Shown: piece after piece, positions 15,373 through 59,271 of the stretch
Position numbering within the stretch: the stretch's first letter is position 1
Layout of the letters: each line of letters opens with the position of its first letter
Assembly (NCBI RefSeq): GCF_003573695.1
Contig: NC_039359.1
Span: forward strand, 77,886,783 to 77,950,782
DNA: 64,000 nucleotides
Direction of reading: 5' to 3'
Origin: Papaver somniferum
Lineage: Eukaryota; Streptophyta; Magnoliopsida; Ranunculales; Papaveraceae
The notes under the pieces: generated by a model
What the model was told of the DNA's origin: nothing
Seen by the model: the letters and a program-made list of their open reading frames with translations, nothing else
Databases searched by the model: none
Translations under genes and position numbers: made by a program

Positions 15373-15385
15373 TTTTGCATATTGT

Positions 15386-21436: not shown

Positions 21437-21448
21437 GCTCTGATACCA
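21437..21448 (-). promoter_or_regulatory. primer binding site (initiator Met-tRNA), copy 2
   Basis: Minus strand TGGTATCAGAGC, identical in position relative to the LTR edge at 21451. Confidence 0.9.
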
Positions 21449-21450
21449 AT

Positions 21451-28080: not shown

Positions 28081-28093
28081 TTTTGCATATTGT

Positions 28094-33743: not shown

Positions 33744-34031
33744 TCAGATAACTGAGTGTAATTCATTTAGTTTATCACAACTAATTGGATTATGCAGAGG
33801 AGGAGCATTGCCCTCACTGATTAGTAAATCAATATCAACCTCAACATGAATATTATTCATCATAACTTGATTTAGCCTGTCAAGAGATTCTTGCTCTTTC
33901 TGGAGGTATAACTCAACATCAAGAGATAAGCTCTCAAGCTTCTTTTCAAGCCCTGAAAACACTTCAAGGGATTCTAAACCTGGTGGAGGTTTAGATAGAA
34001 TTTTTTCTACGGATTTTATTAAATCAGTCAT
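33744..34031 (-). CDS. copia leader ORF, copy 3 (95 codons)
   Basis: Identical in length and sequence, as far as I can see, to the copy 1 ORF at 8316-8603. Intact start downstream of the primer site; no gag domain recognised. Confidence 0.4.
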   Translation of the reverse strand: MTDLIKSVEKILSKPPPGLESLEVFSGLEKKLESLSLDVELYLQKEQESLDRLNQVMMNNIHVEVDIDLLISEGNAPPLHNPISCDKLNELHSVI

Positions 34032-34144
34032 GGAAGAATTCTGAAATCCCTAGATCTGGTGGTGCATTTATTGAGATAGCATTACTTCCCATAGAGTCAG
34101 ATCGCTACAAACACAGACTTTTAAGGTCTTGAACGTGTTTGCCT

Positions 34145-34156
34145 GCTCTGATACCA
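34145..34156 (-). promoter_or_regulatory. primer binding site (initiator Met-tRNA), copy 3
   Basis: Minus strand TGGTATCAGAGC adjoining the LTR edge at 34159. Confidence 0.9.
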
Positions 34157-34158
34157 AT

Positions 34159-35609
34159 TGAAAAGGCGGGGGTCTAACAACAACACCCAATATTTCGCTT
34201 AGCAATCTATATGGACTAACTAGAATATAATTTTAAGAGAATCAACAAGACTCAATTAATTAAAAGTATATCAACGAGTTTATATCTCTCTTCTTGATTT
34301 GATTTACTCAAGCAGGAACTGCGAGTTCTAAACAAATGCAAAGAATAACTTGGATGGTACCAAAGACCAATATCCAAGGATCAATCAATGACAATCAACA
34401 ACCAAAGGTTGGATTACTCTGATTGATGATCTAACGCACAACCTGTATTATTTCAATTATAAAACAATATAATGCGGAAATTGAAATAACATAGACACCA
34501 GAAATTTTGTCAACGAGGAAACCGCAAATGCATAAAACCCCAGGACCTAGTCCAGATTGAACACACACTGTATTAAGCCGCTACAGACATTAGACTACTC
34601 CAAGATAACTTCGGACTGGACTGTAGTTGAACCCCGATCAATCTCCCACTGATCCAAGGTACAGTTATGCTCCTACGCCTCTAATCCCAGCAAGATATTG
34701 CGTACTTGATTCCCTTAGCTGATCTCACCCACAACTAAGAGTTGTTACGACCCAAAATCTCAGGCTTTGACAATAAACAAATCTGTCTCCCACAGACAAG
34801 TCTATCAACGGATCAATCTGTCTCCCATAGATAAACCCTCAAGGTTTTGTTCCGTGTTTTGATAATAATCAAGGTTAACATGAAGCAACTGATAATCCGG
34901 TCTTATATTCCCGAAGAACAACCTAGAGTTATCAATCACCTCACAACAATCTTAATAGTATGGTAGTGAAACAAGATGTTGCGTAATCACAAACAATGAG
35001 ATGAAAATGTTTGTGATTACTTTTTATATATTTCCTATCGGAGATATCAATCTCAATCCAATCAATCTGATTGTACTCGTACGATAGAAGATGCAAGATC
35101 AGATCACACAACTACGATAAAAGTAGTATCGGTCTGGCTTCACAATCCTAATGAAGTCTTTAAGTCGTTAACCTGGTTTTAGAAGAAAAAAACCAAAGGT
35201 TAAAGGAGAATCGACTCTAGTATGCAAACTAATATCACACGTGAGGTGTGGGGATTAGTTTTGCACAATACTAGACGTCTCCTTTATATAGTCTTTCAAA
35301 TTAGGGTTTGCAATCAATGTTATCTTAGTAACAAAGCATTCAATATTCACCGTTATATGAACACCTGATTTAGATTCAAGCTAATATTTCTCAACCGTTA
35401 GCTTGTTATACACACTTAACAATGCACGCTTATAGGTTTGTTAACCGTACCCAAACATATGCACTTGTTGGGTCAACAATATTTAATCAAAAGGTTAGCC
35501 ATACGAGCATTTCATATCAACCATGTTCGTCTTCACCATAACTAGTTCAAATGACTTCAAGTGAACTAGTTAGAGAGTTGTTCAATTGCAAGGAAATCTT
35601 ATGTACTAC
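34159..35609 (-). mobile_element. Ty1/copia 5' LTR, copy 3, truncated
   Basis: Collinear with 8731-10181 and cut at the same point. All three copies share the truncation, so it predates the triplication. Confidence 0.8.
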
Positions 35610-36532
35610 TGTTTGAGGGTGAAAATGATTTCTGCTGATTTTGGTAATTTCGGGTGTGTGGATGAGAAACGAATTTAAACCCTAAAAAATGTACTACAAG
35701 GGAGTACTTTAGATTCGAGAGATCAATCTGTACAAACCCATCCTAAACCAAGAAATGGTCGTTCCAGACTTTTTTCGGTCACAAAGTGAAGGAGAAGGGT
35801 TGGTTTTGGGGAGAGAAGCGAAAAAAGTGTTGAGACCAGAATAGTTGATTATGGAAGAGTAGTTGTTTCACGACTTGTATCAGAAAGTGGGAAGCGAACA
35901 GATGAAAATCTAGAAAATGTTTTATGAGTGTTGTATCTTCCTGACCATGAACTTGTTATTCGGTGGAAATAGGTAATGCATATTTATACAAGTCGAAGTG
36001 AAACGTACTCTGGTCTCATTAAAAAACGGAAAACGGGTGAGTAAATGGGAGGAGGTGGTAACCGGTAACGCTTGGAATTGATGTTCCATAAAAGAAAGCG
36101 TTTCATCATTACTCCCTGTATTTACTAACCGCCTCATCCTTATGACACTTTCTTATAACGAGCATAGTGTACGCCGCACGCTGTAAACCGCCAAACCAAT
36201 ACCCAATGAGCATCCCCCAGTTTCTGACATGTGTTGATGTCTCGAGTGTTTTCGCGGAAAACATGTAGCATGTTATTGTTGTCTGGAAAGTTGAGCTTGG
36301 GAGACTTGCCGGATCGGTGGTGACCTTCAACGGTCGAGATTTTCCATCTAAAGAGGAAGGTAGCCGTTGATTACTGCAACCTTTCATTTGGTAGCCAGTG
36401 GAATGAAAGTATGATCAATATGGCTTTAATATGGCCCAGTTTAGGCGCGGCCAAAAGTTAGGGTTTTGGCTTTGTTTAGGCGCGACCAAACTAGGGCCAA
36501 AGGTTGCCATGTGTTAGCTGGTAACCTTGGAC

Positions 36533-37878
36533 GGCTAAGATCTGCATCTTAGATGAAAAAATGGTCCTTGATTATTGCGGGCTTTCGTTTTGGTAGCCAA
36601 ATAGGGAAGACCGGCATGGTATGGCGCGGCAAGGTGGTTGGCATGCCATTGGCACATGTGGCATGGCATGCCTTGGCGCGGTTTGGCATGGCCAAAACTA
36701 GGGTTTTGGGCCAAAGGTTACCATGCGTTGTTTGGCGACCTTAGACGACTAGGATTTGCATCTAGGATGGAAGGGTGGTCGTTGATCGTCGCACGCCTTC
36801 GTTTTGGTAGCCGCATGGGGAAGGACGGCATGGTATGGCGCGGCAAGGTGGTTGGCATGCCATTGGCACATGTGGCATGGCATGCCTTGGCGCGGTTTGG
36901 CGTGGCCAAAACTAGGGTTTTGGGCCAAAGGTTACCATGCGTTGTTTAGCAACCTTGGACGGATAGGATTTGCATCCAGGATGGAAGGGTGGTCGTTGAT
37001 CGTCACACGCCTTCGTTTTGGTAGACGCATGGCGAAGGCCGGCATGGTATAGCGCGGCAAGGTGGTTGGCATGCCAGTGGCATGGCATGCCTTGGCGCGG
37101 TTTGGCGTGGCCAAAACTAGGGTTTTGGGAATAAGGTTACCATGGTTGTTTGGCGACCTTGGACGGCTAGGATTTGCATTTAGGATGGAAGGGTGGCCGT
37201 TGATCGTCGCACGCCTTCGTTTTGGTAGCCGCATAGAGAAGGCCGGCATGGTATGGCGCGGCAAGGTGGTTGGCATTCCATTGACACATGTGGCATGGCA
37301 TGCCTTGGCGCGGTTTGGCGTGGCCAAAACTAGGATTTTGGGCCAAAGGTTACCATGAGTTGTTTGGCGACCTTGGACGGCTAGGATTTGCATCTAGGAT
37401 GAAAGGGTGGTCATTGATCGTTTCACGCCTTCGTTTTGGTAGCCGCATAGGGAAGGCCGACATGGTATGGCGCAGCAAGGTGGTTGGCATTCCATGCCTT
37501 GGCGCGGATTGGCGTAGCCAAAACTAGGGTTTTGGGCCAAAGGTTACCATGCGTTGTTTGCTGACCTTGGACGAATAGGATTAACATCTAGGATGGAATG
37601 GTGGCCTTTGATCGTCGCATGCCTTCGTTTTGGTAGCCTCATAGGGAAGGACGACATGGTATGGCGCGGCAAGGTGGTTGGCATGCCATTGGAACATGTG
37701 GCGTGGCATGGCATGCCTTGGCGCGGTTTGGCGGGACCGAAACTAGGGTTTTGGGCCAAAGGTTACCATGCGTTGTTTGGCGACCTTGGACGGCTTGGAT
37801 TTGCATATAGGATGGAAGGGTGGTCGTTGATCGTCGCACTCCTTCGTTTTGGTATCCGCATAGGGAAGGCCGGCATGG
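36533..37878. repeat. ~185-215-bp satellite array, copy 3 (7 units)
   Basis: Unit starts at about 36533, 36735, 36950, 37154, 37368, 37560 and 37782. The duplicated dimer present in copies 1 and 2 is absent, consistent with loss or gain by unequal exchange. Confidence 0.9.
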
Positions 37879-38463
37879 TGGGGCCAAGGCCAATGACGCG
37901 GATGGCTTGGCATAGTGGGGCCAAGGGTTTGGTACAGACGTCTTGGCATGGTGGGGCCAAGGAAAGGTGCGGTTGGCATGGCATGGTGGGTCCAAGGGTT
38001 TGACATGTCATTGGCGCATGGTGCGGCTAGCATGGTTGGGTCCAAGGCAAGGTGCAGTTGGCTTGGCATGGTGGAGCCAAGGGTTTGGCATGCCATTGGC
38101 GCATGGTACGGATAGCATGGTTAGCATGCCTTGGCGCAAGAGATGTGGATGGCATGGTTTTCCATTGGCACAGTGGTGCGGCCGGTATGGTTGGCATGCC
38201 TTGGCGCGGAGATGTGGTTGGCATGCCTTGACGCGGAGATGTGGCTGGCATGGTTTTCCATTAGCACAGTGGTGCGGCTGGAATGGTTGGCATGCCTTGG
38301 CGCGGAGATGTGGCTGGCATGGTTTGCCATTGGCACAATGGTGTGGCTGGCATGGTTGGCATGCCTTGGCGCGGAGATGTTGATGGCATAGTTTTCCATT
38401 GGCACAGTGGTGCGGCTGGCATGGTTGGCATGCCTTGGTGCGGTATCATGAGAATTAGGGTTT
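37879..38463. repeat. GGCATGG-rich degenerate short repeats, copy 3
   Basis: Collinear with 12861-13445 with a handful of substitutions. False ORFs on both strands. Confidence 0.8.
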
Positions 38464-39193
38464 GGCATAGATGATGTCGGTCAATGTTAAGGGTACCCTG
38501 GTAATTCTTACGTAGGCATGATGATCGATTCAATAAATGTGCTAATGGTCATAGTGACGTCATGTCAGTTGTACGGTTTTACGATTTTAACCCTAAGCTA
38601 AAAACCACCATCAACATTAAGTCCCCTGCTTTGCTCGGAACAGGAGCATTGTTGCGAGGTAAGCATAAGATGGTGACATGCAAGGACAAAAATCGAAACG
38701 AAAAGTCGTGGAAAGATGACCAGGAAGGTCCGAATAACCTTTTCAAGAGGTAAGGAGAGTCCATGATCCTCGTGTTTGGCGGCCTTGCGTAGATTCTAAT
38801 CGTGGTGTAGACCGTGAAGTGGCGAGATGAAGATCATCGGCTTAGTCTGGCTATGCATCACCTTGGATGGGTTAGGGAACATCATGATGCTGGATTGGCG
38901 AGTTGTCGGTGTTGGTGCGGCAAGTCATGGCGCGGACGGCTTGGCATGGTGCGGCCAAGGAAATGGCGCAGTTTGGTGAGGCAAAGCATGCGCGGACGAC
39001 TTGGCATGTGGGACCAAGGCATGGCGCGGTCCTGGCGAGGCAAGCATGGCAGACGGCTTGGCGTGGTGGGGCCAAGGCAATGGCGCGAACGGTCTTGGCA
39101 TGGTGATTGGTCTTCGCGGGCCCGGTTGCCCCTTTTCCTTACTTGACTCAAATAGCAAGTCTTTTCCTTATTCAAACTCCCAAGTATCACTCC

Positions 39194-39201
39194 TATAAAA
39201 G
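39194..39201 (+). promoter_or_regulatory. candidate TATA box upstream of the PMD gene
   Basis: TATAAAAG in ctccTATAAAAggaggg, about 615 bp upstream of where the PMD frame opens (39810) and on its strand. It is a plausible promoter for a PMD transcript starting in the LTR-like segment; this is inference. Confidence 0.45.
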
Positions 39202-40054
39202 GAGGGTCGGCCTTTCCTTTTACATCACACCTATATTTTTTTTATTCTGGCTGTGTGGTAACAGTAAAGCGGACGAGCAAACCCTAGCTGTAGGCGTACC
39301 TTTTCATGAACTTGTATAAATGTTGTCCTTCTGCATTGGTATGAATCCTAGTTGTAGGTATGCTTTGCACGAACTTGTAGTATCATTTAGGCGTGAATAC
39401 CGTAGTGATGTTGGCCGCCTCAATTACCGCGCAAAGTAGGCATGCGTGAGCTGGTAACTGTCATTCCCTTCCCGCGAAAACCTAGCTTCTAGGGTTTACT
39501 CCTTTTTCCTGGTGTGAGCGCGTGTATGGTTCCCGTGGTGGGGCGCGCCTCCTCGGCCGGGAGAAAATTTCCCGCTACAGGGTATGGTCTTGGCATGAGG
39601 TGGTGATGCAGGGTCTGTCAGTGCCCATTTCTTTGCTTATGTGCATTATGACTTTGAAACAAATTGGCTTGCGTCCAGTATGGATCTCCTGTGTCTGATA
39701 AAATAATTTCCATGCACTTTCCGTAATAATTTGTCTTCGTACAGTTCCATTGTAGTTATATCGAAGGTGGAAGTAGCGTGAGAGAATGTTTGTTAGGATG
39801 TCATTTTAGAAAAGTTCTGCCGTACTGAAAGATGTTGGCAATTCCAAACCAAACATATATGATGAGTTCTTTACAACATCCGCCACGATTAGGAGAAATC
39901 ATCCCAAGTATGTGTTAATTCTTCTGACTGGTCCGGAAAGTGAAGGAGAGGCCCGGTCGGTTCGGCCAGGGGGTGTAATAAGGTTTTGCCTTCAGAGGAA
40001 AGAGTATCATGCTTCTCCTATTGACTTTAAAATCTCTGTGAGTCCGTTGCGTCC

Positions 40055-41551
40055 TGATGGTTATTTTCAATGATGTTGTAGTAAGATGGTTCGTTCAAGA
40101 CTTGTGAAAGCAGATTTTTTTAGACTTAAATTTTATAAATGATAATAATAAACTCAAATAAAAAGGTGATGTGAATATTGTGGAGAGATTGGGGCTAGGA
40201 TTCCACCAATGGTCGATATTAGTTATTTAATAAAACAATAATTTCGCAACTCAACATTCAAATTGATTCTAATAGTATTGCCTAGACATGTAGATTTTGA
40301 AAAGAATAGATGTTAATCCAAGCATAGAATATCAAAACTCTAAAGCAAGCACATTCTATCAAGAGAAAATACACCTAACTAATCAAAATCATATAATCCA
40401 TTTTTAGATCAATGCAAAAATCATAATAGAATTGCTATAATTAATTTAAAATAAAGATATATCACTTTTACCGAAACAATGGCTTCCTCCATAGCCCCGA
40501 GGATTGGGTTTAACTCTTCATCATGGAAACACACTCAAAAAGATAATTCATTGCTCAAAAATTGCTTATAAGGATGATAATATGGGAGAAAATAATTAAA
40601 AACCGAGTTCGTAACAGTTATAAGTGTTACAAACCAGCTGTTACAGAGAACGATATATGTGAACCGTCACTGATGCTGTAGCATCGACCCTCACCCCTCT
40701 GTCGTTGTCACTGTTGATAAACGACTGTCTCTGTGCGTCTAAAGTTCTTCGTGTTCTTCAGTGCACCAACAGAAAACGTTATTCCTGCAACTTCATTTTC
40801 AGCTATGTTGAAGCTCTAAACTGCTCCCCAAACTCTCCTTCCTCGACTCTACTCCTTAGAAACAACTTATATAGCCTTATGGTACCGAAAATAATCTCTA
40901 ATAACTCCAAATATTCCCAATTGAATGCGATTATTCTTCACGTCCAGATTAGGGAATAGTTTCCATTTTTGGTTTCTCCACGCGGTATTCTGAAGACAAC
41001 ACACTCCAATCATGCTCAAAAGACGTCTCAGAAGAATATCTACATGCTCTGACTCGTGCAAATCGTGCAAATCTTCCAAGTCCCGAGAATATTCTCACGG
41101 GAAATATACCAGTCCTGAGTTCTTCGATTGGTGATTATCTAGCCAAATTGGATTGAATCCAACACCCATACCGTTCCTGTGTTGACAATTAAAACAAACC
41201 CGAGTGATTTCAACCATTGAATCTCCCTAGAAATTCTTCAAATTCCCAACCTTAATTTTGTTCCAGTTTCCCGCCATATTTCTAAATTCAAACTAAGCGG
41301 ATGAAGTCTCCTTAACCAGACTGGGGGTGCGAATAGCAGATGTCCCACTGAGGTGCCCCTTATCCAAAACTGGGGTCCGTTTAGCAGTTTTCCTTCGGGG
41401 GTGTTCCGCATAATTTTGCGAGCCGATTTTTCCAAAAATGTTTGTTTTCCAAAAATACCTACAAACACACAAAACACCAAAATAAGCACAAATCCGAGTA
41501 CCAACAATACAGAAAATTGAGGAAAACTTAGACACAAAAATGTGTCTATCA
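40055..41551 (-). repeat. Athila 3' LTR
   Basis: Plus strand TGATGGTT...TCTATCA. On the minus strand it starts TGATAGACACATTTTTGTG directly after the polypurine tract. ORFs inside (for example 41238-41562) are non-coding artefacts. Confidence 0.85.
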
Positions 41552-41567
41552 AATACCCCCAAACTTA
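41552..41567 (-). promoter_or_regulatory. Athila polypurine tract
   Basis: Minus strand TAAGTTTGGGGGTATT next to the LTR start, the characteristic Athila form. The related phrase ccccaaactta also occurs at about 42534, 43105 and 43202. Confidence 0.8.
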
Positions 41568-42863
41568 TTATTTGCTAGTCCTCGAGCAAAAATAATCTAG
41601 AAAATAAAATGACTACACTTAGCACGTGCAGCAAGTCGTTAAACCGCTAGGTGGCCCTAGCGGCGGAGTGTTGTCTCCGTAGGGTTTAACAGAGGTGTAC
41701 TCACAAAACCTTTACTCTAGACCCTAGCTATCTACGCAGAACCTTGGAAGTCACTAACGAATCTCCTTGGTTGGCATACAAACATTGACTATAGGAGGAA
41801 GTACCCTGATGCGAAATTCCAATTGTTGTACACGAGTTTGCACTCAGCATACTATAATTCATATATAAGTGACAGAGCTCTACTCAGATAGTTTCTAAAC
41901 ATCATAACCGGAGTCAACCAATCACATGGAAAGATTAAGAAGATGGATAAAGAGAAAAATAGATGGTTTAAAGTGAACGGTGTTTCCCATATATGTCTGA
42001 AGGCCTCTGCCAAGATGAGCCTATCCTAATGGACTGAGATACCAGTCTGACTAATATCAACACAACTGGAAAATACAAGGGAACCAGTGGTCGATAAACC
42101 TAAATCTAGGTCAACACAACTGGCATATACAAGGGCACCAGTGGTCGATTTTATTGAATTTATTCCGGTTGGTCTGATGGTCTAGTCAATTTTTTTTTCA
42201 TGGTATCTCAATCACCATATTTCACCCTAGCAATGGTAACAACTTGAATCGTGTGCCCCACCAAATTACTTAAAAAAATAAAAACAGAAGGATTAGGATT
42301 CAACGAGATATGGCAAAACTACCATGTTTGTTTTTTAATTCTAACACCTGAGCTATGTGCTTTTATGAATAGACTCTTTAGATGTTTCCATCTAATCAGA
42401 TTGGTTCCTCAACTCCTATAACCAAGATGTTCTCATCCACTTAGATTGGTTAGTGCCAACCTTAATAAGCATAAATTTCTAGGCTCCGGAGTTTATTTAT
42501 TGCAGCTAAGAGCTAACAAAAAGTTTCTTCCCCACCCCCAAACTTAAATCTAACATTGTTCTCAATGTTCTAATGATGAAATTAAAAGCATGAACAAGAA
42601 GAAATTGTTACCACTTGATGGATGGAAAAGAAATAAGGAAGGATATTACCGTAAGCATGAGCGTGGGTACCTCCCAGGAAATGCTAAATTTAAAGTCTTT
42701 AGCTAGACATCAAATACCTCAAAAAGGATTGTCACCTTCCAAAGTCATATATCAATAGTCGAAACAATTGTGGGTCCATCAGACCAAATAGAGCTGACAC
42801 CAGTATGAGATAACTGCACTGGTTCAGAAAAATGAAAAGAAGGAGCACGTCCTCATCTAAGGT
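41568..42863 (-). other. Athila 3' non-coding region
   Basis: About 1.3 kb with no ORF and no env-like sequence between the linker ORF and the 3' LTR. A phrase 'gtcaacacaactgg.a.atacaagg..accagtggtcga' is repeated twice at about 42055-42150. RT-RNase H-integrase would be expected upstream of here but is missing. Confidence 0.6.
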
Positions 42864-43424
42864 TTATGTTAAGACAAATGGGTTTATCTGCGGTGCGTAA
42901 TTGAATTTCATATGTGTGTCTCGATAAATAGATTCATCCGAAAAACGGGTTTCTAATACCTGGGTTACACCCTGGACAGTATCAGGAGGATCAGGTTGCG
43001 GAGTCTGAAAAGACTCAAGTAATATCTCATATGCACAAGGCTCGAGTCCCAAGTTAGGGACTCTAATTAGGGATACGATACAATCACAAGAACCATCACT
43101 ACCCCCAAACTTAGGGTTTACAGACAAACCTCTAACTATTGCTTGAATTTCTGGATCTTCAGAGTCCTTCAAATACTCAAGAGATTCTTCTAGTTCTCTA
43201 CCCCCAAACTTAGGGTCATCATTATTCTCAGAAAAACCTGAAACTATTGCCTGAATTTCTAGGTCCATAGAATCTTTAAAATACTCAAGAGCTTCTTCTA
43301 AAGATTGATCACATGTCTGATCTAAGAGAATGGTTTCCTCAAAATCATCTAAAGAATCTACCAGTAAAGTGTCAAGCCAATTATCCTGAACCAAATCCTG
43401 AACTAAAATGCTAATCATATTCAC
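42864..43424 (-). CDS. Athila protease-RT linker ORF
   Basis: A 186-codon ORF just after protease, starting four bases beyond its stop. It is very acidic (Asp/Glu-rich) with an internal duplication of a block resembling LEYLKDSEDPEIQAIVRGLS (first copy about 43205-43290, second about 43125-43190). It has no enzymatic motif. In longer Athila elements an acidic, poorly conserved stretch separates protease from RT; here the RT that should follow is deleted. It ends in a TAA at 42864. Confidence 0.5.
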   Translation of the reverse strand: MNMISILVQDLVQDNWLDTLLVDSLDDFEETILLDQTCDQSLEEALEYFKDSMDLEIQAIVSGFSENNDDPKFGGRELEESLEYLKDSEDPEIQAIVRGLSVNPKFGGSDGSCDCIVSLIRVPNLGLEPCAYEILLESFQTPQPDPPDTVQGVTQVLETRFSDESIYRDTHMKFNYAPQINPFVLT

Positions 43425-43427
43425 TTC

Positions 43428-44225
43428 TTATAAATCATCGTTCTCAGAAGGTTGTCTAGTAACATTAAAGACATTTAGTTCAGTGGTCATATTACCAAAG
43501 GATATGTTCATAAGCCCAGTCCTACAGTTGATGACAGCGTTAACTGTGTCTAAAAATGGGCGACCTAAAATTACTGGGATTTGAGAACTTGAGTCCTGAA
43601 CAGGCTGGGAGTCTAGAACAACGAAATCCACTGGATAAATAAACTTATCAACCTCAATCAGAACATCCTCTATGACACCACGAGGGACTTTGACAAACCT
43701 ATCATCTAATTGTAGTGTCATTTTAGTCGGTTTCAACTTACCAAGACCTAGCTGGGTGTATAGATGATACGGGAGTAAGTTAACACTATCTCCTAAGTCA
43801 AGTAAAGCTTTATCGACCATGTGATTACCGATCGCACAAGATATGGTGGGGCATCCGGGGTCCTTATACTTAGGGGGTGTTTGGTTCAGAGGGATGGAAC
43901 TTACTTGACCAGCTAAAAAGGCTTTCTTATGGACACTAAGCTTACGCTTTCGTGTACAAATATCTTTAAGGAACTTGGCATAGGCAGGCATCTGCCTAAT
44001 TGCTTCTAATAACGGAATTTTGATGTTCACCTTCTTAAATGTTTCCATTATCTCATTGAAAGTCGACTCCTTCTTTGTTGGGGCTAAAATATGTGGATAT
44101 GGGGGTCTAGGCACAAAGTTAGTTCTATCAGGAATTTATTGGGAATCCTTAGATACTGTTTCAGTTTCCTCGTCTACGGGCTCCTCTTGGGAAGTAGAAG
44201 GTGGAACTACAGTATGTAGGCATGG
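43428..44225 (-). pseudogene. Athila aspartic protease region
   Basis: This is the retroviral-type protease that cuts the Gag-Pol polyprotein. Visible are a basic CTRKRKLSVHKK stretch, then DLGDSVNLLPY where Athila proteases usually read DLGASVNLLPY, then the flap-region signature LQLDDRFVKVPRGVIEDVLI and ILGRPFLDT near the end. The catalytic Asp is retained, but Ala to Asp next to it is unusual. The frame is shifted relative to the gag tail at about 44225, so gag and protease are no longer one ORF. The open stretch starts at 44114 and ends 43428. Confidence 0.75.
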
Positions 44226-45597
44226 CTACCTTATTGTCTAACGTTTTACCACTCCTAAGGGTTATTATCGAGTTCACATGGTTTGATGATTTCTCGCCAG
44301 CTAAAGATATTTGATGGACTCCCCTAGGGTTGGGTTGTGGTTGACTAGGAAACTTTCCGTTTTCTCTCAATGTCTCATTTATCTGACTAACTTGAGTTTT
44401 CAACTCGGAAATAGCCTGAGAGTTAGCCTGACCTATTCTCTTATTTTCTTCTAAACCTTGAGCAACAGATTGCTGAAACTATACAGTGTTACAAGTTAAT
44501 AAAGCAAGATACTCTTCTTAACTCATAATCTTCTTATCCGAAGGGTTCTGAAACTGTATCGGAGCTGAAGGATTCTTAGTATAGCCAAAACCCGGGGGAA
44601 CCTGAGAGTTACTAGACTGACCTTGATTCCGGCCCTTAGACCAAAAAAGGTTGGGATGGTTTCTCCAGCCAGGGTTATAGGTTTCTGAATATGGGTCAAA
44701 CTTCTGACGGTTATCGAATCTAGTGTTGTTATAAAGAGCATTGGCTTGCTCCTCAACAGTATGTCCTTCCCAAAAAGGCTTTATTCTACCACCACTAGAA
44801 TGACCTAATTCTAAGGCTTCTAACATTTTGGCTATGGCTTCTATTTTAGCATCTGACTCATAAGATCCTTCTACCCTATTGACATTTCCTCTACTTAGAA
44901 GAATTGTTTTCTGGGGTTCCCTACTATTTTCCCATTGTTGGGTCTTATCGGCGATTTCATTCAAAAATGTCATCGCCTCATCAATAGTTTTATTCTCAAA
45001 CCCACCTATGCATAAGGACTCAACCATGGTTGTTGTTGAATAATATAAACCCTCGTAGAGGATCTGAACTAACCTAACCATCTCTAAACCATGATGAGGA
45101 CATTGAGATATTAAGTCATTGAACCTTTCTAAATACCTATATAAAGATTCTCCCTCTTGTTGAGTAAAAGTACAAATTTGTGTCCTAATAGACGATGTTT
45201 TGTTCCTTGGGAAAAAATTCTGTATAAAGGCAGATGTAAGTTGGTCATAGGTTTCAATTGACTCAGAAGTCAAACTATACAACCAATATTTGGCTTTATC
45301 TTTTAATGAAAGGGGGAATAACCTAAGTTTCAACGCATCATCACTAAGGTTTTTAATCTTCAGATTACTACAAACTTCCTCAAATTCCCTAACATGAAAA
45401 TAGGGGTCCTCATTCTCTTTTCCTAAAAAGATTGGGAGCATCTGTAAAGTCCCAGGTTTGAGTTCATAATTTTCCTCGGTTTCATCTAACTTGATACAAG
45501 ACAGATGAGAGGTCCTAGTTGGGTTTAATAAAGCTTTCAAAGTTTCCATTTCAGGCACTACCAAAGGACTAGGAGTACTTTCTTCACTAATTGTCAA
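44161..45597 (-). pseudogene. Athila gag
   Basis: Gag forms the particle that packages element RNA. The frame opens at 45597 (359 codons) with METLKALLNPTRT near the start. The retrotransposon gag core follows at about residues 85-190 (LRLFPLSLKDKAKYWLYSL, FFPRNKTSSIR, GESLYRYLERFNDLISQCP), then the conserved spacer PGWRNHPNLFW. A TAA at 44518-44520 stops the frame where the second copy reads Leu. A second in-frame stop near 44487 sits at the same codon as a stop in the second Athila. The frame continues to 44161 with a PRGVH and TLRSGK tail. No zinc knuckle is seen. Confidence 0.8.
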
Positions 45598-46856
45598 GTT
45601 TTCAAAGATGAAATTTCCAAAGACAGGGCTCTCAAAAGAAGAGTCTTCGATCTACCTGCCTTCACAAAAAGAACTACTAGGTTTATTACTAATCAAACGA
45701 CTTAGAATGTTTATTTTCCAAGCCCGCTCTCTAATAACTTCGGGCATACACTAGAAAAACAAAAGAAAAAGAAAGAAATCCTAAAAGGAAGGGAAGTTCT
45801 ATGCAAACACAAACAAGGCTGACTCCACCACAGCAAACCTACTGATTTCTAGCAAACAAAAAGCATGATGGCTCCACTTAGATTGTTTCTAGACCAGCTT
45901 CTAATCCTTCGAAAGGGAATTCGTTACAATTTAAGCAAACCCCTCTGGAATCAATCCGAGTTAAAGTAAGTTGAATCCAGACGAGGGAAGCTCAGTGGAG
46001 CTTTGATACCCAAGGCCTCACCGGGGTTACAAGGAGGCGTATTCAACTCACAGAAACCATCATAAACTTTGAAGCATGCTTAAAAGAGTAACCAATATTT
46101 TTCGAATGACTTCCCTATTAAGCTCGTTACCCTATAGGTCTCGTTCTAGTCAAATTTTAGGCTTACGTTTGCGTTTGGTTTCGTTTTCCTAAGGCGGGCA
46201 AGAAGGGAACGGTGATGAAATCCGAACCCTTATCTTGTATGGCCAGTCCTTGCCCTTTACTAAGAAATTAAATCAGTCGCTTTCAAATCCTCAGCATATA
46301 TGCAAACGAAGGAATACAGTAACTCGCTGACATGGAATTCGCGAGTGTTTCGACAAACTTACCTCCCGTACCAGACGGGGGATGAACTGTTGTAGTCGAC
46401 TCGGGCCACGAGTCCTATGTCATGTACGAACACGAGGGGCCGAGGCGATATCGTAATCGTCGTCCTTCTCTGCAAACAATTGATATTTAAACTACCCTTC
46501 CGTAGGGTTTAAAAAAAATAAAAATAAATAAACCAAAGTCCACAGTCCACGGTCCAAAAATATAGTGCAAAAGAAAAGGAAAGTCGAAAAAAAATAAAAA
46601 AAAAACTCTAAAGAATAAAAACAAAATAAAATGTCTCTCTCTTTTTTTTTATTAATTTTTTCTTCTTCTTTTCTTTCACTCCTTTCGCTTTGCTTTTACT
46701 CCAAATCTTTAAGTATTCACCAAAAGCTTTGGCAAATTTTTCCTTCGCTCCAAATTCCAAAATCTATAAGGAAAAGACAAAAATCCAAAAACGTAAAGAA
46801 GAACAAATAAAATCCTAAAAAAAAAAATCTAAAAATTCTAGCCTAAAAACAAGTTC
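45598..46856 (-). other. Athila 5' leader
   Basis: About 1.26 kb of untranslated sequence between primer site and gag. It has A/T-rich low complexity at 46500-46650 and a block around 46020 that is conserved in the second Athila at about 52980. No ORF. Confidence 0.6.
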
Positions 46857-46876
46857 GCGTCGGCGGCGCCGAAAAT
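46857..46876 (-). promoter_or_regulatory. Athila primer binding site
   Basis: Minus strand, just after the LTR end: tttCGGCGCCGCCGACGCG. It resembles the TGGCGCCG-type primer site of Athila elements with one or two mismatches. The same position in the second copy reads TGGCGCCGCCGACGCGG. Confidence 0.65.
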
Positions 46877-48373
46877 TGATGGTTATTTTCAATGATGTTG
46901 TAGTAAGATGGTTCGTTCAAGACTTGTGAAAGCAGATTTTTTAGACTTAAATTTTATAAATGATAATAATAAACTCAAATAAAAAGGTGATGTGAATATT
47001 GTGGAGAGACTAGGGATAGGATTCCACCATTGGTCGATATTAGTGATTTAATAAAATAATAATTTCGCAACACAACCTTCAAATTGATTATAATAGTATT
47101 GCCTAGACATGTAGATTTTGAAAAGAATAGTTGTTAATCCAAGCATAGAATATCAAAACTCTAAAGCAAGCATATTTTATCAAGAGAAAATACACCTAAC
47201 TAATCAAAATCATATAATCCATTTTTAGTTCAATGCAAAAATCATAATAGAATTGCTATAATTAATTTAAAATAAATATATATCACTTTTACTGAAACAA
47301 CAGCTTCCTCCATAGCCGCAAGGATTGGGTTTATCTCTTCATCATGGAAACACACTCAAAAAGATAATTCATTGCTCAGAAGGTGCTTACAAGGATGATA
47401 ATATGAGAGAAAATAATTAAAAACCGAGTTTGTAACAGTTATAAGTGTTACAAACCAACTTTTACAGAGAACGATATATGTGAACTGTCATTGATGTTGT
47501 AGCATCGACCCTCACCCCTCTGTCGTTGTCACTGTTGATAAACGACTATCTCTGTGCGTCAAAAGTTCTTCGTGTTCTTCATTGCACCAGCAGAAAACAA
47601 TTTTCCTGCAAATTGATTTTCAACTCTGTTGAAGCTCTAAACTGCTCCCCTAACTCTCCGTCCTCGACTCTACTCCTTAGAAACAGTTTATATAGTCTTA
47701 TGGTACCAAAATAATCTCTAAAAACTCCAAATATTCCCCATTGAATGCGATTATTCTTCAAGGCCAGATTAGGGAATAATTTTCATTTTTGGTTTCTCCA
47801 CACGGTATTTTGAAGACAGCACACTCCAGTCATGCTCAAAAGACGTCTTAGAAGAATATCTCCATGCTCTGACTCGTGCAAATCGTGCAAATCTTCCAAG
47901 TCCCGAGAATATTCTCACGGGAAATATACCAGTCCTGAGTTCTTCGATTGGTGATTATCTAGTCAAATTGGATTGAATCCAACACCCATTTTGTTCCTGT
48001 GTTGACAATTATAACAAACTCGAGTGATTTCAGCCATTGAATCTCCCTAGAACTTCTTCAAATTCCCAACCCTAATTTTGTTCCAGTTTTCCCGCCATAT
48101 TTCTAAATTCAAACGAAGAGGATGAAGTCCCATTAACCAGAATGGGGGTGCGAATAGAAGATGCACAACTGAGGTGCCCCTTAGTAATATAGGTGCCCCT
48201 TATCCAAAACTGGGGTCCGTTTAGCAGTTGTCATTCGGGGGTGTTCCGCATAATTTTTCGAGCCGATTTTTCCAAAAATACCCACAAACACACAAACACC
48301 AAAATAAGCACAAATCCGAGTACCAACAATACAGAAAATGGAGGACAACTTAGACATAAAAATGTGTCTATCA
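46877..48373 (-). repeat. Athila 5' LTR
   Basis: Collinear with 40055-41551. It carries a local duplication of 'aggtgcccctta' (about 48171-48200) and lacks a short 'tgtttgttttccaaaaa' piece relative to the 3' LTR. It ends TCTATCA at 48373, followed by the target duplicate cgtct and PMD coding sequence. Confidence 0.85.
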
Positions 48374-49802
48374 CGTCTCTTTGAGAAATGGATGCGATTC
48401 ATGATGAGCCAGGAATGTGTAAAAGTCAGTTTTACCAAGGCGCAGATCATTGATTCTGTCGCGGCTTCCGCAGTGCTTCAAATTAGGAAAGATATTCCAA
48501 GCTTGGTTGTTTTTATTTTCAGATGGTGTCCAGACACTCACACGTCCATATGCAGGTGGGGTGAAATGACTATCTCCTTAGAGAGCGTGGCAGTGTTGCT
48601 GAACCTTCCTGTAATAGGAAATCTCGATGTCAAATTGTCTGCAGATGAAGAAGAAATGCGCACCGCTCTGGTTGCGAAATAAAAAGGATTCGTTCGGAAA
48701 GAAAACGAGACGAGGTGCTTCTATGGCTGGTGGGTGTTTCAGTGGTTTCCCGATGAGTTGGAGCTGAATCAGGAGAATAGTACGCTTCATGTCGCGGCGT
48801 TCTTGGCTCTTTGGTTATCCAGAGATATTTTCGATGACGGCTCGGGTAAGAAGGAGATAAGACAGGAACTTATCAAGTTTTCCATAAAATTGGCAAAAGG
48901 TGTCGTTCTCCCTATTGGCGGATTTTTTATTGGTTCTCTGTACACACACTTGGATCAGCTGGTCGCGGACATGCGCGCTTCAAATGGTTACATGAAAGTG
49001 GATTCGTATATTCATGCCGCCTTTCTCCAAGCGTGGCTGTGGGAGCACTTCGAAAGGTATGCTCCAAAACCGTTGGCCGTACTTCCCAAGTCTTGGGGTG
49101 GCTCTAGGATACTGCGCTGGTCGAATAGGCGCCCAAAGATTGGTTCGAACCTGGTTGGATTCCTTGACAACTCCCACACGGTCAATTTTCGTCCATGGGC
49201 TCCGGTGCATGCGTCCATAACTCAGATCAGTACCTTTGCTCCTACTCCTGCTCCGAGCATGTCTTTATCTTCTGATAAAGAGGATATGGGTGTTGGAGAG
49301 ATGGTGTTCATGCGAAGATGCATACCCGGTTATGTGTCGTCTTTCTTTCGAGGATCTTGCAAAGCAGTCTCTTACAATATCGATAAGGAGGCTTGTAATG
49401 GGTTTTGACCAAGGGGTCCCACTTGTTCGTCAGCCGGTTGTTCCAGAAGTCTCGTTGCCAACTGTTCTCGATGCTACTATTCTTGTGTCGGCTAAAAGTC
49501 TCCTTTTCCTGCTTGTGGAACGAAATCCATCAACAACCTCCAAATATAACATATTTTGGCAGGATGAGTTTGTCGTTTTCCATGGATTCGTGAATGATGT
49601 GGTAGAAAACCGTCACGGTAAGCCTTCTTCTGTGGTTTTAGAGGAGCATCCACTGCTGAGGGATCCTTCTTAGCGCAAGCGGAAATCCGTTAGCCCGAAT
49701 GCAGATAGTCCCCAAGTGAAGGAGCAAGGATATAAAAGCCGTGCAGATGGTTCCCAGTTAGTTTCTACATCCCTACCGACTTTCAGTTCGTCCAATATGC
49801 GG

Positions 49803-49887
49803 GTACGTGTGATTTTCCTCTTGACTTTAGTTGGATCGTGTATATCCTTGTTTCTTTCCTGAGTATCCGTCTTTCTATGTTGCCTAG
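49803..49887 (+). other. probable intron 1 in the PMD gene
   Basis: Donor GTACGT at 49803 and acceptor TTGCCTAG ending 49887. It joins two exons in phase 0 (codons CGG and GGT), and the downstream frame then stays open through a Ser/Glu-rich exon. The interior is T-rich, as plant introns usually are. Confidence 0.55.
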
Positions 49888-50088
49888 GGTCTTAGCAACG
49901 TGAATGCCTTTACCAAACTTGCAAGCAGTCAGAAAAAATTGTTTCTCGAGACGGAGGGTGGCGGTTCTGAGCCTATCCGTGGCGATGGGGAACCCGAGAA
50001 GGATGAAAGCTCAGAGTTCAGTGATGGTGAGAGTAGTTCTTCCGACAGCAGTGTTGAATCTTCCTCTATCCAGTCTGAAAGCGAATCA

Positions 50089-50147
50089 GTTAGTCTCCCG
50101 CATGTTTTTTTTTCTCTTTGGAAAATATCTAATCCGTGATGTCATAG
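50089..50147 (+). other. probable intron 2 in the PMD gene (59 bp)
   Basis: Donor GTTAGT at 50089, acceptor GTCATAG ending 50147, phase 0 on both sides, T-rich interior. It is short for a plant intron, so a decayed coding stretch is possible. Confidence 0.45.
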
Positions 50148-50783
50148 GGGGAAACCGTTTCTGAAAATGGCCCTGAGATGGAGACTGGTGGTGATACAGC
50201 TTTGTCTCCAATTGTGGTAGCCGCACCGGGCGACCTTGGAATGGATGTTGATCGATATGAAAACTTCGTTGTGACTCAGACAATGGAGAGTACTCCAGTG
50301 GCCACAGGTGCAATTTTCGTTAGGAATCCCTTGTCGGTTGTTGATGTAGACGCGGGCGCCACTTTTAACCCTCCATACCTAGTTCTTTATCCGGATCATG
50401 TGTTGATTGGGGGATTTAGCGTGTCAGTCAAACATGAGGCGCTATACACCAAGATATGGGAAAGCTACGGACATATTGCCACAAACCAAGAAGGTTACTA
50501 GTCGATTTGCGTTGGTTAAGCCTGTGGACGAAGCTTTTTCTTCGATTGACGACGTGTGCAACATGACCGGTAATACTTTTTCTGAGGATGTAATCTCTAG
50601 ATGGAGGTTCCATCGTGACATGTGTGTAAAATTCGAGTTCAATGTTCCTTGGTTCGTTGAAGGTTTCTCTGAGGTTTAAAAGTTGCTGCTTGAAACAGCC
50701 GAAGGTCAATCTGCGGATATGGTAAAGAACCAGGAAGCGGAAGTCGAAAAATTGTACAGGAAGCTGAAGATGACGAGGGCGTC

Positions 50784-51418
50784 TCACCAAGTCCTAGCTC
50801 TAAGTATACATGGAATGGCAGTAAGTTCACACTGGCTCCTAAGTCAAGTAAATATTTTTCTACCCGGAAGTTACCTATTGTGCAAGCAATGGTAGGAGAA
50901 CCTGGGTCTTTGTACTTTGGAGTTGTGGTGTTCTGAATGATTGAACTTACGTGACTAGCTAAAAAGGATTTCTTATGGACGCTAAGTTTTCTCTTTCGCG
51001 TACACATATCCTTAAGGAACTTGGCATAAGCAGGAATTTGCCTAATTGCATCTAATAAGGGAAGGTTTATGGTAACTTGCTTAAAAACCTCCACTATGTC
51101 ATTAAAGTTCGATTCCTTCTTTGTTGGTACTAATAGCTGAGGAAATGGGGCTCTAGGACTAAAATCAGACCTTTCAGGAACCGAATTCACATTATCAGAA
51201 ACTTTATCAGTCTCTTCAGCTACTGGTCCTGAGAGGTGAGATCCTGAGGGGTGAACTACAATATGTTCACTATCGGGCATGGTTACCTTATTGTCTACAA
51301 CTCTACCACTTCTAAGGGTTCTAACAGCATTCAATTGATTCGATGGTTTTGCACCTAATTCATGAACTCCTCTAGGGTTGGGTTGTGTTTGACTAGGAAA
51401 CTTACCTTTTTCTCTCAA
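50784..51418 (-). pseudogene. second Athila gag tail and protease N-half
   Basis: Same frame as gag after its stop. It keeps the PRGVH and TLRSG tail, LVPTKKES, the basic CTRKRKLSVHKK stretch and the catalytic LLDLGASVNLLPF, then breaks off after LELGLG at the junction. About 50 codons of antisense PMD sequence are appended to the open frame and are not protease. Confidence 0.75.
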
Positions 51419-51526
51419 AGAATCACTTATCGTACCAACCTGGGTTTTTAACTCGGAAATAGCCTGACTATTTTCTTGTCCAATCCTGTTACTAGCTTGT
51501 AGACTCTGTTCTACGGATAACTGAAA

Positions 51527-52636
51527 TTATGCAGTTTGCTGAGTTAACAAGGCGAGAGATTCCTCTAAACTTAAGATTTTCTTATCAGAATGATTCTGAA
51601 ACTGAGTTAGTCCTGAGGGATTCTTAGTATAGCCAAAACCTGGGGGAGCATTAGAATTACTAAACTGACCTTGACTTTGGCCCTTAAACCACGAAAGGTT
51701 CGGATGGTTTCTCCAACCAGAATTATAGGTTTCTAAATATGGGTCAATCTTTTGACGGTTATCAAATCTAGTGTTCTTATAAAGAGCATTGGCCTGCTCT
51801 TCAATATTCTGTCCTTCCCAAGAAGGCTCCACTCTACCACTAGTCTGGCCCACTTCTAAGGCTTTTAACCTTTTTGCTATAGCAGCAATTTTGGCATCTG
51901 ATTCATAGCCTCCTTCTACCCTATTAATGTTTCCTCTACTTAAAAGAATTCTTTTCTGGGGTGCCCTACTATTTTCCCATTACTGGGTTTTTTCGGCGAT
52001 TTCATTAAAAAATTCCATCGCCGCATCAACAGTTTGGTTTTCAAATCCACCAGTGCATAGAGACTCAACCATGGTCGTTGTGGAATAATCTAAACCCTCA
52101 TAAAGGATCTGAACTAGCCTAACCTTTTCTAAACCATGATGAGGACACTGGGATAATAAATCATTGAACCTTTCCAAATACCCATATAAAGATTCTCCCT
52201 CTTGTTGTGAAAATGTGCATATTTGCGTCCTAATAGACGATGTTTTGTGCCTAGGGAAAAACTTATTAAAAAAGGCAGATGTAAGTTGTTCATATGTCTC
52301 AATTGAATCAGAGTCCAAACTATACAGCCACGACTTGGCCTTATCTTTCAGGGAAAATGGGAATAACCTAAGTTTCAAAGCATCATCATCTAAGCCTCTA
52401 ATTCTTAGAGTACTACAAATTTCCTCAAAATCCCTAATATGGTAATAAGGATTTTCATTTTCTTTCCCTAAAAAGATTGGGAGCATCTGTAAGGTCCCGG
52501 GTTTCAGTTCATAGGGTGCCTCCGTTTCAGCTAACTTAATACACGAAGGACGGGTTGTCCTAGTTGGATTCAACAAAGCTTTCAAAGTTTCCATTTCTGG
52601 CGCTATCGGAGCAACAGGGATTTTCTCCTCAGTCAA
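51527..52636 (-). pseudogene. second Athila gag
   Basis: Starts at 52636 with METLKALLNPTRT near the N-terminus. Gag core motifs LRLFPFSLKDKAKSWLYSL, FFPRHKTSSIR and GESLYGYLERFNDLLSQCP follow, then the PGFGYTKNPS tail. One in-frame TAA at 51980-51982 replaces the Gln found in the first copy (TQQWENS), a C to T change. The frame ends at a stop at 51527 that coincides with a stop in the first Athila. Confidence 0.8.
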
Positions 52637-53828
52637 AGAACGTTCAAAAACAGACTCTTCAAAAGCCGGACTTTCTAGATTAAGGTAATCTAGACGTTTC
52701 GAACTAAAGGTTTCTCTTTAACAAATCTACCTAGTGCGTCTGTTTTACGTTCAGGCATACAATATAATTTTCTAAATTGGAAGGGTAAGCAAACACAAAT
52801 CAAGGCCGACTCAACCAAATCAAACCTATTGATTTCTAGCAAACAAAAAGCATGATGGATCCACTTAGATTGTTTCTAGACCAGCTTCTAATCCTTCGAA
52901 CGGGAATTCGTTACAATTTAAGCAAACACCTCTGAAATCAATCCGAGTTAACGTAAGTTGAATAGAGGCGAGGGAAGCTCGGTGGATCTTTGATACCCAA
53001 GGCCTCACCGGTATTACAAGGCGGCGCAGTCACGCATTCAACTTACAGAAACCGTCAAGAACTTCGAAGTATGCTTAAAAGAGTAACCAATATTTTTCGA
53101 ATGACTTTCCTGTTAAGCTCGTTACTCTATCGGTCTCATTCTAGTCAAAATTTTAGGCTTAGGTTCGCGTAGGTTACGTGTTCCTAAAGCGGTCAAGAAG
53201 AGAACGGTGATGAAATCCGAACCCTTATCTTGTATGGCTAGGCCTTGCCCTTTACTAGAAAAATAAATGTCCGTATTCAGTCCTCAACATATATGCATAC
53301 GAAGGAGTCCAATAACTCGCTGACAGGGGATTCGCGAGTGTTTAGAATCTTACCTCCCGTTCCAGACGGGGGATGAATAGGTTATAGTCGACTCGGGCCA
53401 CTGACTCCGATGTCTAGTGTACGAACCCAAGGTGCAAAGACAATATCGTAATTTTCCTCCTTCTCTGCAAACAGTTTATATTTAAAGTACCCTTCCGTAG
53501 GGTAATAAAAAAAATAATGTCCCAAAGTCCAAAAGTCCAAAAAAATAAATAAAAATTACAAAAATAATAAACCCTAATACAATTTTTTTTTAAATAAAAT
53601 AAACAAACCCTAAACTAAAATTGTCTAAAATAAAATTGTCTTCTTTTCTGTTCTTTTTGCTTTAATCTTTAGCTCCAAATTTTTATGAAATCACCAAACT
53701 CCTTGGCTCAATTTTCTTTATGATCCAGAACCTGTAGACATAAGATAAACACCCAAAATCATAAAAAGGGACAAAAATAATAAAAAATAATAAAAAATAA
53801 ATAAATCTAAAACCCTAAAAACAAGTCC
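52637..53828 (-). other. second Athila 5' leader
   Basis: Untranslated leader matching 45598-46856 in part (for example around 52800-52960 and 53210-53420), with A-rich low complexity at 53510-53620 and 53760-53810. No gene. Confidence 0.6.
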
Positions 53829-53848
53829 GCGTCGGCGGCGCCAAAAAT
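53829..53848 (-). promoter_or_regulatory. second Athila primer binding site
   Basis: Minus strand TTTTTGGCGCCGCCGACGC right after the LTR end, a TGGCGCC-type Athila primer site. Confidence 0.7.
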
Positions 53849-55401
53849 TGATGTGATTTGTAGATAGTGGTAAAAGTGGTTCGATTCTCAGACTTGTGAA
53901 GGATATTAATTAGACTTAAATTCTAATACTAAAATAGAAAACTCACTAAAAATTATAGCAAACTCAATTAAAGATGATATCAATACTAAAAGAAACACTG
54001 AGGCTAAGATTCCACTATTTTCCAAATTCAAAATGATTAAATCAATACTTATATTTGTGCAATTTTCTTGTTTAATTTGATTCTAAAATATTGCAACAAG
54101 TAGATTTTCAAAAGTAATAATTGTAAATACCAAGTATGAAGCATCAAAAGTCTTAAAACTAAGCATACTCCATCAAAATAGATCACAATCACTCAAATAA
54201 AAATCATATTCAATAATAGTTCAAGGCGAATAATCATATAATTATTGCAAATAAAAAGATAAAATAGAATATACCACTTTTTGTTGGAAAAATAGCTTCC
54301 TCTATCGCCTCAGCAATGGGGTTTAGCTCCTCATATTAATCATGATCTCAAAATACGTGTTTGTTGCTCAAAAGATGATTAAAAGAGTGAAAAGTAATAA
54401 CACAGATTTTTTGCAACAGTGTATTGGTGTTGCAAAACAGCTGTTACAATGGAACTGTTACAGAAAAATTGTTGCTTTGTCGCTGATTTTAAGACCCTAG
54501 AATAAGACTGCCCTGAACATCTTAATGTTCTTCAGCTGCTAAACAACGACACTTTTCTGCGACTGTCTACCGAGCGTCAATGTTCTTCGCGTTCTTCTTC
54601 TTCTTCAGCAGCAGCAGAAACAGAGTTTGGTAAAGCTCTGATTTCTTCTTCTCTGGCTCTCCTTAGGTTCCCAAACTCTCGACACCTCTTCTATATGACC
54701 GAAGACATCTATTTATATCAAAAATACCGATTAAATCTTTACCAAATCTTCCAAAATCTCTTTCCTTCTCTTCACGGCCAAGTTGTGACAATTTCTTGTT
54801 TTAGGATTTCTACGCGTTTCTTAGCTTTCCTTTTTATTCTAAACTCTTCCTTAGATAGATACAAATCTTTGGGAAGGTTTACATCGCTTTAATCTCTCTA
54901 AAATTCCCTAAAACAGGTCACACACGTGACTTTCCATATTTTCTTGTTGTGAGAAAAATCCGTCGATTGAGCTCATTCTAATCTATTTAAACACCCATAT
55001 CAGATTCCTAGACCCATAAGGAGTCTATCCTATGAAAATCAGAGGTTTAATCGATCTCAAACTCCTTCAAATCACGATTGCCAAAACTGCACTTTTTTCC
55101 CGCCAAAAACCTGATTTTTGAATGTTGAAGATGGTTGCCCCTTATCCAGAGTAGGGGTGCGATTAGCAACTGCCTGGAAATGGGATGCCCCTTAGTAATT
55201 AGGTTACCCCTTATCCAAAGTGAGAGTCCGAATAGCAAATGTCCTCCAGGTGCTTTCCGATAACTTTTCGAGCCAATTTTTTCCAAAAATGTTTATTGGC
55301 AAAAAATACCTACAAACAAATAAAACACCGTAATAAATACAAAATTGAGCCCTAACAACATATAGAATCGAGACAAATCGGACACAAAAATGTGTTTATC
55401 A
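53849..55401 (-). repeat. second Athila 5' LTR
   Basis: Plus strand TGATGTGATTTG...GTTTATCA. It shares with the first Athila LTR the 'gacttgtgaa', 'cagcttcctc.atcgcc' and 'gacacaaaaatgtgt.tatca' blocks in the same order. ORFs within it are non-coding. Confidence 0.8.
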
Positions 55402-55830
55402 CCAACAAGAGGTCCTTCCCGTCAAGATAGGATTGGAAGCTATATATGCTATCGGGTTTGTCGTGGCTACTATAATCGTCTCGTCCGCTAGTAATATGGA
55501 CGTAGCTTCTGTGCAGCGTAGATAAGAGGTAGACATGCTTGCTCCACGCGCGGGTATCTAAGTTCCACCTCACGTAAAAATCGGCAGACATAATAGATAG
55601 GTGATAACTGGTAGCCCTCATATTTTGTGCCAATACGGCCCCTATGGCCAAGTTGGTAGACGCTATGTACAAATATAAGGGGACTCATTTCATAGGTGGC
55701 CTGAGGACTTGTGGGCTAACGAGGCAATGCTTGAGTTTTTGAAATGTCGTGTGTTGTGTCTCTCCCCATGTGAATACGGCATTTTTCCTAAGTAATGGCA
55801 GAAACGCGGATAGTAACTAAGCGATCCCTG
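55402..55830 (-). pseudogene. Tat-like Ty3 RNase H remnant
   Basis: RNase H removes RNA from the cDNA hybrid. The minus strand keeps a connection-domain phrase (FTWGETQHTTFQKLKH) and RNase H pieces LYLYIASTNLAIGAVLAQ, PIYYVCRFL, RYPRVEQACLPLIYAAQKLRPYY in shifting frames, with several stops. It is cut on the left by the second Athila LTR at 55401. Integrase, expected next, is absent here; an integrase end on the same strand lies at 2670-3044. Confidence 0.65.
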
Positions 55831-59230: not shown

Positions 59231-59271
59231 GGTGGGCTAGGCACGAGCCTCCTGGTGTGGCCTCCAAATGT

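What the first reader, a model, noticed from the sequence alone, without database searches (positions are those of the whole stretch)
39580..50783. PMD gene seemingly carried by a giant-LTR Ty3 element, possibly as an antisense ORF
A plant mobile domain ORF with introns begins within about 230-340 bp of a TG...CA segment of about 4 kb that looks like a Tat/Ogre LTR. On the left of the window a minus-strand integrase end is followed by tandem repeats and then an opposite-strand (plus) ORF remnant at 756-1320. This is the plan of Tat elements with an antisense ORF between integrase and 3' LTR. If the PMD frame is that antisense ORF, this would be a retrotransposon family that keeps a host-type, gene-silencing-related PMD protein under an antisense LTR promoter. 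PMD domains in transposons are known in general; this exact arrangement I cannot place. Against it: no clear primer site or polypurine tract at the right LTR edge.
Basis: partly seen in the sequence, partly recalled or inferred. Interest (0 to 1): 0.8.

Follow-up and report, generated by a model that had tools for sequence, protein, structure and literature searches.

The report
Broken poppy retrotransposon with PMD gene
A damaged gene with a plant mobile domain, known from plant gene-silencing proteins and from some jumping elements, sits right beside a 4-kb repeat that looks like the end of an old retrotransposon in a poppy-like genome; it is probably a passenger gene of that element, a kind already described, and which way round it was carried is not settled.

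Summary
The PMD gene is real (PF10536), multi-copy in Papaver somniferum and dead here. I count four stops and two frameshifts; a second element cuts the frame at 50783. Its right edge shows neither primer site nor polypurine tract, and no paired LTR or gag-pol of this element was found in the window, so both 'LTR' and orientation are inferred. Antisense is slightly favoured: left edge resembling the end of a minus-strand LTR, introns in PMD. A sense, 5' Ogre-type ORF1 is a close rival. The deciding genome search did not complete (11 tries). PMD in Ogre elements, antisense ORFs before the 3' LTR, and a counter-silencing role are all in print. Verdict: new member of a known kind.

The parts
35610..39579 (-). 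LTR-like segment of element F (TGT...ACA), proposed 3' LTR in minus orientation; holds 214-bp tandem repeats
   Evidence: no paired LTR found; orientation inferred
10182..14560 (-). copy 1 of the same LTR-like segment in the tandem triplication
22893..27268 (-). copy 2 of the same LTR-like segment
39798..40052 (+). PMD protein, N-terminal exon (stop at its fourth codon)
   Evidence: tblastn of Papaver PMD proteins; translation
48374..49802 (+). PMD protein, main exon with PF10536; stops at 48680 and 49671, frameshift near 49393
49803..49887 (+). PMD intron 1 (GT-AG)
   Evidence: similarity to P0013 and P0019 resumes at 49888, weakly (E 0.006 and 0.88)
49888..50088 (+). PMD exon
50089..50147 (+). 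PMD intron 2 (GT-AG)
   Evidence: similarity to P0019 resumes at 50148
50148..50783 (+). PMD protein, C-terminal part, frameshift near 50478, stop at 50677, cut off by element B at about 50783
14779..14886 (+). truncated copy of PMD N-terminus in tandem unit 1
27487..27594 (+). truncated copy of PMD N-terminus in tandem unit 2
40055..48373 (-). element A: gag (PF03732) and protease-like frames; LTRs 40055-41551 and 46877-48373, 91.9% alike; inserted in the PMD frame, flanks CGTCC/CGTCT; Athila-like (label recalled)
   Evidence: protease hit is below its curated cut-off
50784..55401 (-). element B: relative of A by DNA (79% over 1.8 kb of the gag-protease part), 5' LTR 53849-55401, left part deleted into PMD; CACCAAG on both sides of the join
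   Evidence: its piece 50642-51526 has no Pfam hit
55402..59268 (-). element C: RT (PF00078) and gag (PF03732) remains, RNase H- and protease-like pieces by eye; its 5' LTR appears to begin at 59269
   Evidence: Tat label recalled from motifs
2173..39898 (.). 12.7-kb tandem triplication (2173-14880, 14881-27588, 27589-39898); join shares CATCCC
3045..10181 (-). element D in unit 1: Ty1/copia-like, LTRs 3045-4493 and 8731-10181, exact match to a recalled tRNA-iMet primer word at 8717-8728
2798..3043 (-). integrase-like C-terminus of an older element H
   Evidence: motif recalled, no Pfam support
1548..2654 (.). 87-bp (1548-1987) and 47-bp (2173-2654) tandem arrays of element H
754..1305 (+). 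frame remnant opposite to the integrase-like frame of H, type unknown

Best explanation
Shown: a decayed, intron-bearing PMD gene runs on the plus strand away from a 4-kb TGT...ACA segment and was later hit by one nested LTR element and cut by another; its relatives are a dispersed multi-copy family in Papaver somniferum. Inferred: the 4-kb segment is the 3' LTR of an old Tat/Ogre-type Ty3 element F lying on the minus strand, and PMD is F's extra ORF, antisense, between the lost pol and the 3' LTR. F would have been copied as a minus-strand RNA from an LTR promoter, while a second promoter near the other LTR edge drove PMD the opposite way; because its introns carry no splice signals in the genomic RNA, they survive copying. 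The protein (PMD, an RKRK basic patch, an acidic stretch and a C-terminal tail) would act in the nucleus, most likely by interfering with the host PMD (MAIN/MAIL1-PP7L) silencing route in favour of the element. That last step is speculation, already printed by others (PMC8616336).
For: Element-borne: 13 named P. somniferum proteins on 7 contigs (told apart by length) plus 5 unnamed ones, 53-87% identical to the query; the LTR-like edge is 219 bases from the PMD start; a plus-strand TATA word lies 386 bases before that edge. Minus orientation: the left edge read on the minus strand, ATCATTTTCACCCTCAAACA, resembles the apparent 3' end of the minus-strand element C's LTR, ATCATATTCACCCCTCAACA; that score (13) is reached elsewhere in 5 of 830 windows on both strands, all five from one site repeated in the three tandem units. 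C's edge was chosen partly by this likeness. A minus-strand TATA word lies 379 bases before that edge. The last 370 bases are more pyrimidine-rich read on the minus strand (0.578 and 0.584 for copies 1 and 3) than on the plus (0.535 and 0.554), as in 5 of 5 LTR copies (three elements) of known orientation (weak). Two GT-AG introns. A second old element H shows integrase-like end, tandem arrays and an opposite frame in that order.
Against: No polypurine tract at 39580. No second LTR or gag-pol of F found in the window; C's LTR region does not match F's LTR along its length. TATA words exist on both strands. The lack of a primer site at 39580 (four recalled words, 2 mismatches allowed) is weak: the same scan also missed the expected primer sites of elements A and B, which are 4 and 3 of 12 bases off the recalled Asp word, and found only D's. 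Classical Ogre carries an extra ORF in sense between 5' LTR and gag (passage in PMC1142308). H's opposite frame is not recognisable as PMD. AlphaFold gave no usable PMD model (mean pLDDT 35.6).
Confidence: 0.46

Rival explanations
1. Sense arrangement: F is a plus-strand Ogre; 35610-39579 is its 5' LTR and PMD is its ORF1 between 5' LTR and gag, as in classical Ogre.
For: PMD is reported in 57% of Ogre elements (PMC6317226); Ogre has very long LTRs (1.9-6.5 kb, PMC6431247) and a 550-codon ORF between LTR and gag (PMC1142308); plus-strand TATA words 386 and 265 bases before the edge.
Against: No primer site recognised at 39580, although LTR pairs in the same nest are still 92% alike, but that scan is insensitive; the introns would have to escape splicing; the left edge looks like an LTR 3' end on the minus strand.
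Confidence: 0.37
2. A host PMD gene, or a PMD gene of another transposon, that merely lies next to an LTR-like segment.
For: Introns; no LTR pair demonstrated; host PMD genes occur across angiosperms (PMC5418596).
Against: Many diverged copies on at least 7 contigs; PMD starts 219 bases from the segment. The three segment copies in the window, all followed by PMD codons, are one duplication and so count once.
Confidence: 0.14
3. Assembly artefact joins the pieces.
For: Three near-identical 12.7-kb units in tandem.
Against: The units differ by about 1% (unit 1 against 2) to 4% (last 3.4 kb against unit 3) and in length; element A has near-matching target duplications.
Confidence: 0.03

Closest known systems
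Ogre elements (Tat lineage, Ty3/gypsy) with PMD extra ORFs
   Same: PMD extra ORF; very long LTR; tandem repeats; angiosperm host
   Different: Pea Ogre's extra ORF is in sense upstream of gag; here the orientation is unsettled, introns are present and no gag-pol of the element was found
Retand/Grande elements with antisense ORF between pol and 3' LTR
   Same: Proposed order: pol, opposite-strand ORF, 3' LTR, with tandem repeats; in Grande the ORF has a promoter of its own (PMC7264820)
   Different: The Retand domain is mainly Transposase_28, and the LTRs of recently active Retand clusters are 315-1194 bp (PMC11963269); here PMD and about 4 kb
Host PMD-C genes MAIN/MAIL1
   Same: PMD domain
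   Different: Host genes act in silencing; the gene here is multi-copy, broken and LTR-adjacent; clade not tested

Membership tests
Tat/Ogre Ty3 element | extra ORF with plant mobile domain (reported for 57% of Ogre) | tested here: met
   PF10536
Tat/Ogre Ty3 element | two matching long LTRs | tested here: inconclusive
   one LTR-like segment (three tandem copies); no second LTR found in the window
Tat/Ogre Ty3 element | gag-pol of the same element with extra RNase H between RH and INT | not testable with these tools
   deleted or outside the window; the neighbouring RT and gag belong to element C
Tat/Ogre Ty3 element | primer site for tRNA-Arg | tested here: inconclusive
   no match within 2 mismatches of one recalled word near 39580, but the scan also missed the sites of elements A and B, and none is expected beside a 3' LTR
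Antisense (3'R) extra ORF as in Retand/Grande | ORF between pol and 3' LTR, opposite strand | tested here: inconclusive
   indirect signs only
Retand | Transposase_28 domain in the antisense ORF | tested here: not met
   the scanned pieces of the ORF of F hit PMD only; three pieces of the H frame give no Transposase_28, only two unrelated hits below cut-off
PMD-A (Gypsy) clade versus host PMD-C | position in a PMD tree | not tested
   no reference PMD-A or MAIN/MAIL sequences in hand

The most novel reading that the evidence does not exclude
A poppy Ty3 family keeps an intron-bearing PMD gene in antisense under a bidirectional long LTR, so that one LTR makes both the genomic RNA and a PMD protein that may counter host PMD-based silencing.
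Probability: 0.38. Interest if true: 0.5.

Novelty: new member of a known kind. Interest (0 to 1): 0.3.

Why it matters
If intact relatives show the antisense plan, introns and a second promoter, Papaver would offer a concrete family in which to test whether element-borne PMD proteins act on the host MAIN/MAIL1 silencing route, a question left open in print. As it stands the locus is a decayed, nested example of a described association.

Tried and rejected
Rejected: the 8.3-kb gap in PMD as an intron (it is element A with LTRs, gag and near-matching flanks). C as the gag-pol of the PMD element (its LTR region does not match). H's opposite frame as the PMD C-terminus (no similarity; the known PMD proteins may simply not reach that far). 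AlphaFold of PMD was poor, so no fold search was run. Three scans of IMG/VR with PMD, RT and integrase pieces confirmed no relative. PDB by sequence: one antibody chain at E 0.98. A search with the C-terminal half of P0013 found only itself and P0019. Primer words Arg, Asp, Met, Lys are recalled; Ala and Trp, also used by this group, were not scanned.

Literature: searches. Seen in part: PMC7264820 (abstract, parts 1 and 2 of 3 of its main section); PMC11963269 (abstract and passages); PMC9289625 (passages and one section); passages only of PMC6317226, PMC5418596, PMC7156037, PMC7004042, PMC11152179, PMC8616336, PMC1142308, PMC6431247. Steinbauerova 2011 was not read, only seen cited. That I saw no text giving the orientation of PMD ORFs in Ogre rests on these searches and passages; the supplements were not available.

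Changed on checking: one search recounted the edge likeness on both strands and showed that the primer-site scan misses the sites of A and B; I therefore lowered antisense from 0.5 to 0.46 and the novel case from 0.4 to 0.38, and raised sense from 0.33 to 0.37. In some searches the right edge of LTR copy 1 was taken as 14548; the true edge is 14560, so distances from it are 12 too small.
Full report
What is there. The right part of the finding holds a real plant mobile domain gene. Two open pieces on the plus strand match PF10536. A protein search found 18 relatives, 13 of them named Papaver somniferum proteins on 7 contigs (told apart by length) and 5 without a name. The window therefore probably comes from a poppy or a close relative (inference). 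tblastn of these proteins places the start of the protein at 39798 and its continuation at 48374.

What interrupts it. Between 40055 and 48373 lies element A: LTRs of 1497 bases, 91.9% alike, a gag frame (PF03732, E 5.9e-19) and a protease-like frame (below its cut-off) on the minus strand, and flanks CGTCC and CGTCT. It sits inside the PMD reading frame. At about 50783 the frame stops against element B, a DNA relative of A whose 5' LTR ends at 55401; CACCAAG lies at the join on the PMD side and fits B's side as well (A's equivalent reads TTACCAAG). Right of B, on the minus strand, are RT (PF00078) and gag (PF03732) pieces of element C; its RNase H- and protease-like pieces are called by eye and have no Pfam hit above cut-off. 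The PMD frame has stops at 39807, 48680, 49671 and 50677 and frameshifts near 49393 and 50478, so this copy is dead.

The LTR-like segment. Its TGT...ACA edges are at 35610 and 39579. The left edge meets the end of a copia-like LTR (element D, whose other LTR is followed on the minus strand by an exact match to a recalled initiator-Met primer word). The segment is present three times because a 12.7-kb unit was triplicated in tandem. Units 1 and 2 are 99.2% alike; against unit 3 they are 98-99% alike over 10.3 kb and 96% over the last 3.4 kb. CATCCC is shared at the join. Each unit contains the 47-bp repeats, the integrase-like end, D, the LTR-like segment and the PMD start; in units 1 and 2 PMD stops after about 36 codons.

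Which way round. No second LTR and no gag-pol of the PMD element were found in the window. C's LTR region does not match the segment along its length. Signs for minus orientation, hence antisense PMD: likeness of the left edge to the apparent 3' end of C's LTR (score 13; elsewhere reached in 5 of 830 windows on both strands, all from one site in the three units); a minus-strand TATA word 379 bases from that edge; pyrimidine content (weak); two GT-AG introns in PMD. Signs against: no polypurine tract at the right edge, plus-strand TATA words as well, and the published sense ORF1 of Ogre. The absence of a recognised primer site at the right edge says little, because the same scan misses the sites of A and B. 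I put antisense at about 0.46 and sense at 0.37.

The left end. An integrase-like C-terminus on the minus strand (motif recalled), 47-bp and 87-bp arrays and a plus frame of 184 codons with two stops follow one another. The frame is more open than chance (4 of 500 shuffles), but neither the protein database nor seven PMD targets recognise it. It supports the general Tat plan, not PMD in that place.

What is known. PMD was found in 57% of Ogre elements (PMC6317226). It was the most frequent of the atypical domains found in plant LTR retrotransposons in a survey of 121 genomes, all in Gypsy-type elements (PMC9289625). The PMD-A clades are reported as exclusively Gypsy-borne (PMC5418596). Antisense ORFs before the 3' LTR are described as relatively frequent (PMC7264820), with Transposase_28 typical for Retand (PMC11963269). 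That element-borne PMD proteins might counter silencing is stated in PMC8616336. [quoted passage not shown]

Verdict. A decayed, nested, partly triplicated PMD-carrying segment, most likely a Tat-type element, in a poppy-like genome; ordinary in kind, with one open point, the strand, that a genome search would settle.

Noticed in passing
2173-39898: 12.7-kb tandem triplication of nested retrotransposons, units differing by about 1-4%, joined at a shared CATCCC between a 47-bp array and a PMD exon.
   Followed up: partly
52131-52230: Rfam snoR71 (44.6 bits, gathering 40) on the plus strand, opposite the gag frame of element B.
   Followed up: no
60327-60520: Two 74-base inverted arms, 84% complementary, 46 bases apart, like a small inverted-repeat element.
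   Followed up: no
61463-61820: Stretch bounded by GGTTTTTAAAGCG-like inverted ends with many GAAGCG words, like a MITE (seen by eye; not reported by the repeat search with its settings).
   Followed up: no
40055-48373 and 50784-55401: Two related elements with gag; among frames of 120 aa or more in A no RT was seen, perhaps a non-autonomous family.
   Followed up: partly
3045-10181: Copia-like element with an intact primer word but only one frame of 120 aa or more, of unknown kind, between its LTRs.
   Followed up: no
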